A program made the translations under genes and the position numbers. This document shows, in pieces, positions 17,712 through 21,537 of a DNA stretch of 64,000 nucleotides. Position 1 is the stretch's first letter. Each line of letters begins with the position of its first letter. The notes under the pieces are model-generated. The model searched no databases and was not told the origin of the DNA. It saw only the letters and a program-made list of their open reading frames with translations. The DNA comes from Labilibacter marinus (lineage in GTDB: Bacteria > Bacteroidota > Bacteroidia > Bacteroidales > Marinilabiliaceae): the NCBI RefSeq assembly GCF_001659685.2, contig NZ_LXYE02000052.1, positions 1 through 64,000 on the forward strand, written 5' to 3'.

Positions 17712-17799
17712 TTTATTTAAACGGTTTTGCGGAAAATAAATTGCAAATCAGGTAAATATTGAAATTCAAATAATCAAGATAGTTTAGTGACTTTTTAGT

Positions 17800-18543
17800 T
17801 CAACTAACTATTAAGCCATTGGATATGGACGTTGCGATAAGTTCTGCTGTATTAGCTAGTTTTGATTTTGCCAGCATTTTTCTGCGATGGGTATCAACGG
17901 TGTGTTTGCTAATTTCTAAATCGAGTCCAATTTCGCAGCTGCTTTTGCCAAGTGCCAATAGGTGTAAAATTTGTAATTCTCTTGCTGTAAATATTAATAT
18001 GTGTTCCCGTTTTAAGCTCTTTTCTTTTGAGGTGTGAATATTATTTACATCATTAGATGATGAAACTATAGAGCACTCGCTAAAGAGTTTAAAGCCTTTT
18101 TCCCAATTCAATTTTTCGTGTAAGGTATTGGTGTTTCGTAATTTAATGTAGTTGCCATTTATATCCTTTATTCTAAACTCAATAGAGAAAATATCTGCAC
18201 CTAACGGAAGGTTGGAATAATTGTTTAAGATAAACTGGCATGCGTTTTTGTAGGAAGAAGCTACGATATCAATATCTTGTGGATGGATGATGTTTAAAAT
18301 ACTTCTAATGTTCAGTAGGTCGTTATGCTGACCGCAAATTTCTTTGAATTCTTTAGATATGTGTGTTAATGAAAAATGAGGAAATCTAGTAATAAAAGTA
18401 AATTGCTTTTTAGTGGCAATAGTAAGATCCTCCGCTATGTTACTAGTTTTGTTGAATGTTCCATTAGATAATTGATCCTCGGTGTAAACCTGATCAATTT
18501 CACTAATTATTTTCTGATGAACTTTGTCCATTATTAAATCCAT
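17800..18543 (-). CDS. PAS - LuxR-type transcriptional regulator (module copy A)
   Basis: 247 residues. The N-terminal two-thirds hold a PAS-like sensor domain (HFSLTHISKEFKEICG, IIHPQDIDIV, FSIEFRIKDINGNYIKLRN). A LuxR/GerE helix-turn-helix follows at about 180-243 (FTARELQILHLLALGKSSCEIG, KHTVDTHRRKMLAKSKL). No receiver domain or membrane segment is present, so it senses a cytosolic signal or a protein partner. It is the paralogue of the gene at 19712-20494, and each follows a secreted TonB-C-like protein gene. The intergenic RNA upstream contains two hairpins. Confidence 0.88.
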   Translation of the reverse strand: MDLIMDKVHQKIISEIDQVYTEDQLSNGTFNKTSNIAEDLTIATKKQFTFITRFPHFSLTHISKEFKEICGQHNDLLNIRSILNIIHPQDIDIVASSYKNACQFILNNYSNLPLGADIFSIEFRIKDINGNYIKLRNTNTLHEKLNWEKGFKLFSECSIVSSSNDVNNIHTSKEKSLKREHILIFTARELQILHLLALGKSSCEIGLDLEISKHTVDTHRRKMLAKSKLANTAELIATSISNGLIVS

Positions 18544-18573
18544 AATCTTCTTGCTATCAAAAGTGAATGTTTA

Positions 18574-18619
18574 ATATATCTGACTTTGTTAGTGTTCGCT
18601 AACATGCATTCAGATATAT
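18574..18619. promoter_or_regulatory. Nested palindrome upstream of regulator A
   Basis: Outer arms ATATATCTGA (18574-18583) and TCAGATATAT (18610-18619) are perfect. Inside them TGTTAGTG (18587-18594) and CGCTAACA (18597-18604) pair at 7 of 8 positions around TT. It can act as a double operator or as a long hairpin in the transcript entering the regulator gene, whose ATG is 31 bases away. Confidence 0.6.
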
Positions 18620-18627
18620 GATTATAG

Positions 18628-18659
18628 CCTGCCCAATCCTGATAAAAGAATTGAGCAGG
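18628..18659 (-). promoter_or_regulatory. Hairpin between secreted protein A and regulator A
   Basis: Thirteen-base arms (18628-18640 and 18647-18659, two G-T type mismatches) without a T-run on either side. Not a classical terminator; may attenuate or stabilise the mRNA between the two genes of the module. Confidence 0.5.
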
Positions 18660-18751
18660 TATAAACTTTTGTATTATTGAATAAGATTTTGTTAAAAACA
18701 GACAATTAAAATTGGATCACCTTAAAGGTGGGCAATAAGGAGCTTGAATTG

Positions 18752-19477
18752 TTATAGAGGTACACCAACCACTTCAACTGTGGCTTGATAATTAGGATCA
18801 ATTAAGCTTGAAAATTCATTTAGCTTTTGAGTTTTCATCATTTCATCACCATTTAGTTCGTGCGTTTTAGCTTGCCAGAATACGACTGATGGTTCTGATG
18901 GTAAAAAGCGTTCAGCAGTTTTTAGTAGTGCTAGGGCAGAGTTTAAGCGATTAGTGGATTTTTTTTCAGCTCTTTCTGCTGACAAGCTAATGTTTTGTTG
19001 TGCATCTATTGCCGCATTGTATTTTTTAATAGCCAACTGAAGGCTAGCATTACCTTGTTCTATTGGCGTTCCGTTTTCTGGATCGTAAAAACTAACAAAG
19101 ATTTTGCGTTGCATTTCTGCTGGTGTTCCGTTTACCATACCAGGTTGCCACATGCCGGATGTTTCAGAAATTACTGAAGCTACGGCTTTATCTGTTTGAG
19201 TAGAAACAGAATTCTCAATACTTAAGTTACTTACCGAGCCATCTGAATTGATGGTGAATAAAACGGATACAACACCTTCATCTAATATAAACTCATTTTC
19301 GAGTTGTGTACCTAAATACTGGCAGATAGGTGAACAATTAGAATTCTCATCAATTGTAAAGCTAGTGCTTCCTGTAAATTTTGGCGATTCAACGGTGGTT
19401 TCTGATAGTCTTGTCATTTGAGCAAATGACAAACATGTAATAACTAATGCTGCTGTTAATAATGAAATCCTTTTCAT
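18752..19477 (-). CDS. Secreted TonB-C-domain-like protein (module copy A)
   Basis: 241 residues with signal peptide 1-19 (ending LSFAQ). Residues about 65-135 resemble the TonB C-terminal domain: GVVSVLFTINSDGSVSNLSIENS, then TDKAVASVI and MWQPGMVNGTPAEM. There is no N-terminal anchor or Pro-rich spacer, so it is not a classical TonB. The C-terminal 90 residues are helical and may form a TPR-like pair (NSALALLKTAERFLPSEPSVVFWQAKTHELNGD). Promoter and a palindrome 25 bases upstream of its -7 element are shared with copy B. It is followed by regulator A. Confidence 0.75.
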   Translation of the reverse strand: MKRISLLTAALVITCLSFAQMTRLSETTVESPKFTGSTSFTIDENSNCSPICQYLGTQLENEFILDEGVVSVLFTINSDGSVSNLSIENSVSTQTDKAVASVISETSGMWQPGMVNGTPAEMQRKIFVSFYDPENGTPIEQGNASLQLAIKKYNAAIDAQQNISLSAERAEKKSTNRLNSALALLKTAERFLPSEPSVVFWQAKTHELNGDEMMKTQKLNEFSSLIDPNYQATVEVVGVPL

Positions 19478-19581
19478 GACATCTGGTTTTTAAAGTTTCT
19501 GATGAATTTAAAAATCTGGAGGACCTAAATTATAGTAGGCTCCAGGTGATGTATTACTTAGGTTTTTAATCAAAGACAATA

Positions 19582-19589
19582 TAAAAGTA
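19582..19589 (-). promoter_or_regulatory. -7-like element of module copy A
   Basis: TACTTTTA on the minus strand matches TAnnTTTG at seven of eight positions. The palindrome at 19613-19628 lies exactly 25 bases upstream of it (counted to its 12-base core). Confidence 0.5.
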
Positions 19590-19612
19590 CCTTAAACTCT
19601 TTTATTTGTCCA

Positions 19613-19628
19613 TACTCAATGTTGAGTA
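19613..19628. promoter_or_regulatory. Palindromic operator candidate, module copy A
   Basis: TACTCAATGTTGAGTA: perfect 7-bp arms around TG. It occupies about -40 to -50 relative to the expected start of transcription, the usual place of a LuxR-type activator box. The same motif lies at the same distance upstream of module copy B. Confidence 0.65.
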
Positions 19629-19711
19629 GTGTTTTTTAAATGCTTGATAGTAAAGGTAAAGAGTTTTTATGAATTTTAAAAATTAACATACATTAACAGA
19701 ATGGTAGGTTT

Positions 19712-20494
19712 TTATAAGTGAGATTCATCAATTAAATTGTTTGAAATTGAATAGGCAACTAATTCCGTTGTATTTCCAAGGTGTGATTTGGATAGCATTT
19801 TTCTTCTGTGCGTATCTACCGTATGTCTGCTAATACGAAGCATTTTGCCAATCTCAGAACTGCTTTTACCAACAGCTAACAGGGCAAGCACTTGTCTTTC
19901 GCGATGTGTAAATAAGGAGGAAAACTCTGACAATTCTTGATCTGGGAATGGGCATGAAACTCCATCTCCATTATTGGTGTAATTGAATTCCATTTGTACA
20001 TTGTTTTTTAGATGACTGATGTCGGTACTTAAAGCAAGTGCTTTAAATTCCTTATCGTCTGTATCTTTTTTGAATATGCAATTCTGATTATATAATCTAA
20101 TATAGTGACCGTCTTTATGCATGATTCTAAAATCCATGGACATAACACTCTTAAAGGGTTTTAAGTTATTATAATTATCAATTACGAATTCACACATTTT
20201 TTTTGTTGCGAGTAATGCAATAGGGTAATCTTCGGGGTGAATGAGGCCGTATAGTTTACGTAAAGTCATTTCTTTGGGATGATAACCAAGAACGTCCGAG
20301 ACGCTAGGTGAAATATATAGCGTTTTAAATGCGGGAAATTGTATGATATGGAAGAATTGATTGTTGAAACATATTAACTTTTGTATTTCTTCTAATTCAA
20401 TACCTTCCTTCGTGTAATTTGTAGAAATAAATTCTTTCCCCGAAAGTGTTTCTATTAAGCAGATTAAATCATTGTATGAAAAAAACTTATTCAT
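19712..20494 (-). CDS. PAS - LuxR-type transcriptional regulator (module copy B)
   Basis: 260 residues, paralogue of the gene at 17800-18543. PAS-like domain with FPAFKTLYISPSVSDVLGYHPKEMTL, LIHPEDYPIA and MDFRIMHKDGHYIRLYN. LuxR helix-turn-helix at about 190-255 (FTHRERQVLALLAVGKSSSEIG, RHTVDTHRRKMLSKSHL). A GTG at 20509 is also in frame, but AAGGGAGG lies 7 bases before ATG 20494. This unusually strong Shine-Dalgarno for the Bacteroidota points to 20494 as the start. An upstream terminator separates it partly from the secreted protein gene. Confidence 0.88.
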   Translation of the reverse strand: MNKFFSYNDLICLIETLSGKEFISTNYTKEGIELEEIQKLICFNNQFFHIIQFPAFKTLYISPSVSDVLGYHPKEMTLRKLYGLIHPEDYPIALLATKKMCEFVIDNYNNLKPFKSVMSMDFRIMHKDGHYIRLYNQNCIFKKDTDDKEFKALALSTDISHLKNNVQMEFNYTNNGDGVSCPFPDQELSEFSSLFTHRERQVLALLAVGKSSSEIGKMLRISRHTVDTHRRKMLSKSHLGNTTELVAYSISNNLIDESHL

Positions 20495-20596
20495 GATGCC
20501 TCCCTTCACGCACTTGTTGTAAAAGTTATGTTTGCTTTGAGCTCGATGGTATAAGTTATTTCAATTTGATTGGTTTGTCAATATTAATAATCAAAT

Positions 20597-20640
20597 AAAA
20601 ATGCAGTTTAAAGTTCGCTTTGTTTCTTTAAACTGCATTT
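20597..20640 (-). terminator. Terminator/attenuator between secreted protein B and regulator B
   Basis: Perfect 15-bp arms (20599-20613 and 20626-20640) with a 12-base loop. On the minus strand the hairpin is followed by TTTTTATTTG. It lies 41 bases after the stop of the secreted protein gene, so the regulator probably depends on read-through or its own promoter. Confidence 0.8.
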
Positions 20641-20681
20641 ACCGGTTTAATTTTTTATCTATCATTGGTTTAATCGCTTAG

Positions 20682-21422
20682 TTAATCAAATTTGAATGCG
20701 ATAGTTTCAGCGTTATTAGAACTGTACATTCTAACCAATTCTTCTAATTCTAAAAATTTCAAATCTCTATTAATTTCATCACCTAACATATCGTAAGTGC
20801 AGGCTTGATAATGAATCACGCATGGTTCGTTGGGTTGATATCTTGATGCATGATTAAATGATGTAAGCGCAGTTTTTAGTTTTCTATTTACTTTTTTATT
20901 ACGCTTATCCTTGGATGAGAAAAGAGAATTTGACCATTCATTGGCCCGGTAGTATTTTTTAAGTCCTTTTGAGTAGTAAGCTACAGCTTGTTGTTGAAGA
21001 GTTACGCCTTCTGTATCGTAAAAATTAACAACAATTCTTTTTTCCATTGCAATGGCCTCGCCGTTATTTTGCCCAGGTAGCCACGAGCCTGAAGTTGACT
21101 TAATAGCACTTAAAACTGCTTTATCGTTCCTGTTTGAAACAGAGTTTTTTATAGCGTAATTTGATAATGTGCCATCAGCATTTACAGTAAAATCAATAAT
21201 AACTTTACCTCCAGTAAAATCAATAGATCTAGCTTGATCAGCAAGGTCAGTAGATAAAAAGGCAGCTAGAGGAGTGGTTGCAATGCCATTAACTTCAGCA
21301 GTGGTTGATGAACTTTTAAAAGTAGGAGCCATTACTTCAATTTCTTCAATTCTTTGATGTTCCTGTCCAAGGCAAATAATGGATATCAGAAACAATCCTG
21401 TTATAAATCCAATTGCTTTCAT
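20682..21422 (-). CDS. Secreted TonB-C-domain-like protein (module copy B)
   Basis: 246 residues, signal peptide 1-19 (ending CLGQE). The TonB-C-like domain covers about 70-140: GGKVIIDFTVNADGTLSNYA, NDKAVLSAIKSTSGSWLPGQNNGEA. The C-terminal part is basic and helical (KGLKKYYRANEW; KKVNRKLKTALTSFNHASRYQPNEP) and parallels copy A. Copies A and B share domain order and the downstream PAS-LuxR gene, which shows tandem duplication of a two-gene unit. It is divergent from the helicase gene. No known function assigned. Confidence 0.75.
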   Translation of the reverse strand: MKAIGFITGLFLISIICLGQEHQRIEEIEVMAPTFKSSSTTAEVNGIATTPLAAFLSTDLADQARSIDFTGGKVIIDFTVNADGTLSNYAIKNSVSNRNDKAVLSAIKSTSGSWLPGQNNGEAIAMEKRIVVNFYDTEGVTLQQQAVAYYSKGLKKYYRANEWSNSLFSSKDKRNKKVNRKLKTALTSFNHASRYQPNEPCVIHYQACTYDMLGDEINRDLKFLELEELVRMYSSNNAETIAFKFD

Positions 21423-21453
21423 GATGTTTTTGTTTTAATGAATAATGCAAGAT

Positions 21454-21461
21454 CAAATATA
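21454..21461 (-). promoter_or_regulatory. -7 element of module copy B
   Basis: TATATTTG on the minus strand matches TAnnTTTG exactly; 25 bases separate it from the 12-base core of the palindrome at 21485-21500. The expected transcript start is about 25 bases from the ATG. Confidence 0.6.
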
Positions 21462-21484
21462 TGTAAGTATGGTCCTTTTGTAAA

Positions 21485-21500
21485 TACTCAGTGCTGAGGA
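21485..21500. promoter_or_regulatory. Palindromic operator candidate, module copy B
   Basis: TACTCAGTGCTGAGGA: arms CTCAG/CTGAG perfect, outer pair imperfect. Together with copy A the consensus is TACTCARTGYTGAG. The compensatory A-T to G-C change in the arms keeps the symmetry, which supports a protein-binding palindrome. Confidence 0.65.
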
Positions 21501-21537
21501 TAGTGTCTTATGCTTATTCTTGCTGAAGTATTTTCTA

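What the first reader, a model, noticed from the sequence alone, without database searches (positions are those of the whole stretch)
17800..21500. Tandemly duplicated two-gene module: secreted TonB-C-like protein plus PAS-LuxR regulator with a shared operator
Order on the minus strand is secreted B (20682), regulator B (19712), secreted A (18752), regulator A (17800). Both secreted proteins have the same layout and both regulators are clear paralogues. Upstream of each secreted gene lies the same palindrome (TACTCARTGYTGAG), exactly 25 bases before the -7 element, at the usual place of a LuxR-type activator box. Compensatory changes in the palindrome arms fit a protein-binding site. The result is a plausible self-contained signalling unit, not one I can match to a described system.
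Basis: partly seen in the sequence, partly recalled or inferred. Interest (0 to 1): 0.85.

Follow-up and report, generated by a model that had tools for sequence, protein, structure and literature searches.

The report
Paired regulator–secreted protein genes with operator
Two neighbouring copies of a gene pair in a marine Bacteroidota bacterium each encode a predicted switch protein and the predicted exported protein it most likely turns on, and a short DNA site that fits this role recurs at the same position in related species.

Summary
Four ORFs, secB–regB–secA–regA, form two copies of an operator–sec–reg unit. Both sec promoters carry a 16-bp palindrome exactly 23 bp from the -7 box (25 bp from its 12-bp core). 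Of 40 full-length sec genes examined in relatives, 10 of 10 directly upstream of a PAS–LuxR gene have this palindrome (at least 11 of 12 positions), and 0 of 30 others do. A family-wide scan also hit a collapsed sec–reg relic in another genus. The palindrome is a NarL-type 7-2-7 inverted repeat centred near -43.5, a class II activator position. The regulators resemble VqmA, EL222 and 3CLO, one-component PAS–GerE factors. The secreted protein is a TonB_C plus TPR-like protein without a TonB-type anchor. Most likely the regulators activate sec. The block is absent at the same locus in a congener, and the duplication predates the species. Homologous sec genes elsewhere sit beside AraC–TPR or hybrid-kinase regulators and lack the palindrome, so sec looks like a fixed output with exchangeable control. 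Signalling between the two proteins is unsupported. Binding, signal and Sec function are untested. New variant of a known kind.

The parts
20682..21422 (-). secB: hydrophobic signal-peptide-like N-terminus + TonB_C domain + C-terminal part, 246 aa
19712..20494 (-). regB: PAS_3 + GerE (LuxR-type) regulator, 260 aa from ATG 20494
18752..19477 (-). secA: signal-peptide-like N-terminus + TonB_C + TPR-like helices, 241 aa
17800..18543 (-). regA: PAS-like (below Pfam cut-off) + GerE regulator, 247 aa
21485..21500 (-). secB operator, 16-bp palindrome with one arm mismatch
21480..21484 (-). secB -33 region, TTTAC
21454..21461 (-). secB -7 element TATATTTG
19613..19628 (-). secA operator, perfect 16-bp palindrome
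19608..19612 (-). secA degenerate -33 region, TGGAC
19582..19589 (-). secA -7 element TACTTTTA (one mismatch to TAnnTTTG)
20551..20581 (-). regB's own predicted promoter, TTGAC-N18-TAACTTAT, without palindrome
20599..20640 (-). 15-bp perfect stem between secB and regB, terminator-like by position (not reported by the consensus terminator scan)
17744..21529 (.). extent of the block absent from the same locus in congener G004; flanking homology ends at 17743 and resumes at 21530

Best explanation
RegA and RegB are cytoplasmic one-component activators. A PAS domain senses an unknown small molecule or redox cue and gates a GerE-type DNA-binding domain (sensing inferred). As dimers they bind the 16-bp NarL-type 7-2-7 palindrome centred near -43.5 of the sec promoters and recruit RNA polymerase to promoters with a poor -33 element (inferred from position, conservation and co-occurrence). 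The product, Sec, is exported to the periplasm, where its TonB_C-like domain and TPR-like helices probably act as a non-energised binding adaptor in the envelope (inferred). The unit is operator–sec–reg, present twice. Both regulators keep the same recognition-helix core, so they probably cross-act on both operators (inferred). regB has its own predicted promoter, and in relatives with 32-70 bp gaps reg may also be read through from sec, giving positive feedback (inferred).
For: Palindrome of at least 11 of 12 positions upstream of 10 of 10 sec genes directly upstream of a PAS–LuxR gene (one, G008 secA, counted by inference because its contig ends), against 0 of 30 other sec genes; random 330-bp stretches of Markov sequence reach 11 in 2 of 1819. 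Exact 23-bp spacing in 9 of 9 genus sites (pattern fitted to these nine, three of which are degenerate) and, out of sample, in 4 of 6 sec genes of another genus, the four directly upstream of reg. The 47-bp composite at up to 1 mismatch in 71 family genomes: 14 hits against 2 for the reversed control, 8 at sec–reg units and one at a sec–reg relic. 21 of 28 half-sites match the NarL heptamer TACYYMT at 6 or more of 7; NarL can activate from -44.5. TAnnTTTG lies at -12 to -5 in a Flavobacterium, which puts the palindrome at about -43.5. 0 of 10 palindrome promoters have TTGAC at -33, whereas 7 of 11 reg genes have TTGAC-N18/19-TAnCTT and no palindrome (motif chosen after seeing the sequences). 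Foldseek: Reg like EL222, 3CLO and VqmA; Sec like TonB-CTD and TPR proteins, weakly.
Against: No binding or expression data. Two regulators with the same HTVDTHRR core (L181, L182) have no composite site within 2.5 kb. 5 of 14 composite hits lie at other genes, and other GerE regulators of the genome might share the site. Three tail sec genes keep only a degenerate site. The Reg model is of middling confidence (pLDDT 72.8, pTM 0.56) and its Foldseek TM-scores over the full length are only 0.3-0.4 for EL222, 3CLO and VqmA. The Sec search has no hit at E 0.001 or below, and its first hit is a FKBP52 TPR protein. What the PAS domain senses is unknown.
Confidence: 0.7

Rival explanations
1. The palindrome is bound by a different NarL/FixJ-type regulator elsewhere in the genome; the neighbouring PAS–LuxR genes act on other targets.
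For: The own genome holds 6 further matches to RegB, mostly in the GerE part; the site is a generic NarL-family box; 5 of 14 composite hits are not at sec–reg units.
Against: The palindrome tracks the PAS–LuxR neighbour: 10 of 10 against 0 of 30. One pattern hit fell on a sec–reg relic. 65 of 71 family genomes have a match to the Reg profile at 1e-15, but only 13 of 71 have the composite at up to 1 mismatch.
Confidence: 0.13
2. Reg is a repressor of sec, released by a ligand.
For: Position alone cannot exclude repression; a dimer reaching about -36 abuts the -33 region.
Against: A centre near -43.5 is the class II activator position; the -33 pentamer is degraded in sec but not in 7 of 11 reg promoters; VqmA is an activator (abstract; EL222 recalled).
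Confidence: 0.09
3. Sec is the periplasmic sensor that passes a signal to Reg (a two-gene signalling unit).
For: Adjacent and co-duplicated genes; elsewhere Sec pairs with AraC–TPR regulators that have a predicted membrane segment, where periplasmic contact is possible.
Against: No membrane segment in RegA/RegB by hydropathy; regulator classes beside Sec are unrelated; no predicted relay through the membrane.
Confidence: 0.08

Closest known systems
VqmA of Vibrio cholerae (PAS–LuxR receptor for DPO; palindrome at PvqmR)
   Same: Cytoplasmic PAS + HTH one-component factor acting through a palindrome (passages of PMC8284805); Foldseek hits 6ide, 6ugl
   Different: Its operator is GG-N6-CC and its target an sRNA gene (abstracts); DPO binding by RegA/RegB is untested; about 16% identity
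EL222 of Erythrobacter litoralis (LOV–HTH)
   Same: First Foldseek hit for RegB (8a5r, 1.3e-8, TM-score 0.32-0.38); PAS-fold + LuxR-type HTH
   Different: RegB matches PAS_3, and by eye I see no LOV cysteine motif (motif recalled, not scored by a tool)
3CLO, Bacteroides thetaiotaomicron putative regulator with LuxR domain (NP_811094.1)
   Same: Same phylum; profile match over query residues 82-245; second Foldseek hit
   Different: A structure only; none of the 8 papers listed of 182 holds '3CLO'; 16-18% identity
NarL/NarP 7-2-7 operators of E. coli
   Same: Two TACYYMT-like heptamers, inverted, 2 bp apart; activation from -44.5 is described
   Different: RegA/RegB show no receiver domain; the promoter is of the Bacteroidota TAnnTTTG type
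TonB C-terminal domain proteins
   Same: TonB_C domain and fold
   Different: Signal-peptide-like N-terminus in place of the coupled anchor, no proline-rich spacer by eye, TPR-like helices follow

Membership tests
PAS–GerE one-component transcription factors (VqmA/EL222/3CLO type) | N-terminal PAS fold plus C-terminal GerE HTH | tested here: met
   Pfam (PAS_3 below cut-off for RegA); RegB model and Foldseek
PAS–GerE one-component transcription factors (VqmA/EL222/3CLO type) | No receiver domain and no membrane segment | tested here: met
   No Response_reg at E up to 1; no segment by simple hydropathy
PAS–GerE one-component transcription factors (VqmA/EL222/3CLO type) | Ligand or light gates DNA binding | not testable with these tools
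   needs biochemistry
NarL/FixJ response regulators | Receiver domain with phospho-acceptor | tested here: not met
   No Response_reg match in RegA/RegB; no NCBIfam equivalog cut-off reached
NarL-type operator | Inverted TACYYMT heptamers spaced by 2 bp | tested here: met
   21 of 28 half-sites at 6 or more of 7; the 6 half-sites of the 3 tail sites and one arm of the secB site fall short
AHL quorum-sensing LuxR | Autoinducer-binding N-terminal domain | tested here: not met
   Pfam lists PAS_3 and no autoinducer-binding domain
TonB energy transducer | TonB_C domain | tested here: met
TonB energy transducer | N-terminal anchor with SxxxH motif and proline-rich spacer (recalled) | tested here: not met
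   Alignment of 19 rows, by eye: short signal-peptide-like N-terminus, no conserved His, no spacer
Class II activator-dependent promoter | Activator bound next to a poor -33/-35 element | tested here: inconclusive
   Sequence layout fits; start sites, binding and dependence not measured

The most novel reading that the evidence does not exclude
Sec is a conserved envelope output whose control has been re-plugged several times: PAS–LuxR with a 7-2-7 palindrome, membrane AraC–TPR with GCAAC repeats, and a hybrid sensor kinase–AraC. RegA/RegB would be receptors for an unidentified diffusible cue in Marinilabiliaceae, and Sec a soluble, non-energised TonB-like adaptor that occupies TonB boxes or envelope partners and so tunes TonB-dependent uptake.
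Probability: 0.2. Interest if true: 0.75.

Novelty: new variant of a known kind. Interest (0 to 1): 0.52.

Why it matters
It gives a clean, testable regulator–operator–target trio in Marinilabiliaceae and ties a group of PAS–LuxR factors of Bacteroidota to a defined DNA site. If the swapped-control picture holds, the same exported protein under unrelated regulators points to a function worth controlling in different ways, and offers a natural experiment on how operators and regulators are exchanged. A soluble TonB_C–TPR protein would also raise the question whether TonB-box binding can be used without energy coupling.

Tried and rejected
A single-protein scan of named genomes found no relative. 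A mechanical sigma-70/terminator scan found no more than its shuffles. PADLOC gave only weak matches in the HTH part of the regulators and none for the sec products. Plasmid search with SecA: no match. Phage search with RegB: one 24% match, not followed. The five composite hits away from sec–reg (G016, G033, G067, G088, G090): ORFs around all five were listed, and Pfam was run on the downstream gene of three (G016 chemoreceptor, G033 TetR, G090 no family); I do not take them as regulon members, but this is a judgement. The Reg tree does not resolve whether RegA and RegB are each one clade. In order- and class-level samples, with only about 6 first-look candidates scored per genome, full-length Sec was found in 2 genomes outside the family (393 genomes) and no Reg at 1e-45 outside the own genome (395 genomes).
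Full report
What is in the window. Four minus-strand ORFs, secB (20682-21422), regB (19712-20494), secA (18752-19477) and regA (17800-18543), lie between a CHU_C-domain gene and a UvrD-type helicase gene. Both sec products have a signal-peptide-like N-terminus (hydropathy only) and a TonB_C domain above Pfam's cut-off. Both reg products have a GerE domain; PAS_3 is above cut-off in RegB and below it in RegA. Protein searches of the own genome found no further full-length copy, only partial matches: 6 to RegB at 0.001 and 2 to SecA at 0.01.

The operator. CTCARYRYTGAGTA occurs without mismatch only at the two sec promoters in the whole genome; at 1 mismatch it is no commoner than its reversed control (16 against 14). 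The full site is a 16-bp palindrome, TACTCA-N4-TGAGTA, whose end is 23 bp from the -7 element. In the four genomes of the genus that have the unit, 9 of 9 sec genes at this locus have the site or a variant at exactly this spacing (the pattern was fitted to these nine, and 3 of them are degenerate). In a second genus, 4 of 6 sec genes beside a PAS–LuxR gene have it without mismatch, all four being the sec directly upstream of reg; the other two lack it.

One search took 40 full-length sec homologues (of 41 matches at E below 1e-50; the one left out, L109, is a near-copy of L108). The palindrome (at least 11 of 12 positions within 330 bp) lies upstream of 10 of 10 sec genes that sit directly upstream of a PAS–LuxR gene, and of 0 of 30 others: 3 tail copies in the genus with a degenerate site, 2 extra copies in the second genus, G021 where another gene lies between, and 24 beside other genes. 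G008 secA is placed in the first class by inference, because its contig ends. In random 330-bp stretches 2 of 1819 reach 11.

Pattern scan. The 47-bp composite in 71 family genomes at up to 1 mismatch gave 14 hits in 13 genomes against 2 for the reversed pattern. Eight are at sec–reg units already seen. One, new, in G011 of another genus, stands before a short ORF whose first codons resemble a sec start (by eye, weak) and whose end is the C-terminal HTH of a Reg-like protein (69.7 bits): a collapsed pair with its operator. Five are elsewhere. The genus copies with weaker sites (G007 and the tail copies) are missed at this threshold.

What the site is. The half-sites match the NarL heptamer TACYYMT at 6 or more of 7 positions in 21 of 28 cases (consensus from passages of PMC4886647). 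NarL sites are 7-2-7 inverted repeats and NarL can activate from -44.5 (passages of PMC7419079). With TAnnTTTG at -12 to -5 (passages of PMC9723704) the palindrome is centred near -43.5; start sites here are not mapped. The -33 pentamer is TTGAC in 0 of the 10 palindrome promoters, whereas 7 of 11 reg genes have TTGAC-N18/19-TAnCTT, and 0 of 11 the palindrome (chance 0.002 per 250 bp, but the motif was chosen after seeing the sequences). regA is among the four without it. This contrast fits an activator-dependent sec promoter and an independently expressed regulator.

The proteins. RegB's model (mean pLDDT 72.8, pTM 0.56) matches EL222, the B. thetaiotaomicron protein 3CLO and VqmA by E-value, with full-length TM-scores of only 0.3-0.4. 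VqmA is a cytoplasmic PAS–HTH factor (passages of PMC8284805). The 10 regulators next to the site and the relic share the helix ISxHTVD[TI]HRRxML; two with the same core but another continuation, L181 and L182, have no site nearby. SecA's model (pLDDT 83.7) is a TonB_C-like fold followed by four helices; PDB matches are TPR proteins and TonB C-terminal domains, at weak E-values.

Evolution. In the Sec tree the nine genus copies form one clade (99/96); SecB copies of three species group together (99/97), so the duplication predates these species. The Reg tree does not resolve this. Congener G004 has the CHU_C gene and the helicase directly adjacent; promoter homology ends at 17743 and resumes at 21530, with about 240 unaligned bases between in G004. 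The block therefore seems to have been gained or lost as a unit. In four other congeners no sec or reg ORF was seen beside the helicase as far as the fetched contigs reach (under 700 bp in G006), and none of the four has a full-length Sec match. Three relatives carrying the unit are named: Plebeiibacterium marinum, P. sediminum and Labilibacter sediminis, Marinilabiliaceae.

Exchangeable control. Sec homologues elsewhere are next to AraC–TPR regulators: HTH_18 in 10 of 10 proteins scanned, TPR in 9 of those 10 at the thresholds used, with one predicted membrane segment in 9 of 10 and two in the tenth. Others are beside a hybrid kinase–receiver–AraC protein or a LuxR protein without a PAS match, or beside no regulator. 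None of these has the palindrome. Of 11 beside AraC–TPR genes (one, L058, with only the TPR part in view; one, L189, a partial sec) 10 have [TA]GCAAC in the 300 bp upstream, against 3 of 19 others (motif chosen after seeing some of these sequences). Outside the family the pairing with an AraC–TPR gene recurs in G244; in G200 the upstream gene is a chemoreceptor.

Literature. Searches of the open PMC library listed no paper that by title or abstract start describes this gene pair. Several lists were capped (20 of 85, 12 of 191, 8 of 182, 10 of 1,225), and subscription journals are mostly not held, so this is no proof of absence.

Verdict. The mechanism most likely is class II activation of sec by a VqmA/EL222-like regulator. 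The role of Sec and the signal are open.

Noticed in passing
L193 4405-4721 (G011): Operator in front of a collapsed sec–reg relic in another genus.
   Followed up: partly
L207 4714-4968 (G004): Empty site: CHU_C gene directly beside the helicase, without the four-gene block.
   Followed up: yes
L055, L058, L060, L063, L097, L098, L100-L103, L189: Sec homologues beside AraC–TPR regulators, 10 of 11 with [TA]GCAAC upstream instead of the palindrome.
   Followed up: partly
window 18587-18604: A different small palindrome, TGTTAGCGAACACTAACA, upstream of regA.
   Followed up: no
window 20599-20640: 15-bp perfect stem between secB and regB, terminator-like by position.
   Followed up: partly
L192 1120-1166 (G016): Exact composite palindrome upstream of a chemoreceptor (MCP) gene in a genome without a close Reg.
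   Followed up: partly
L107, L110, L111: Another Sec subgroup lies divergently beside a long gene, an MscS-type channel in the two scanned (L107, L110).
   Followed up: no
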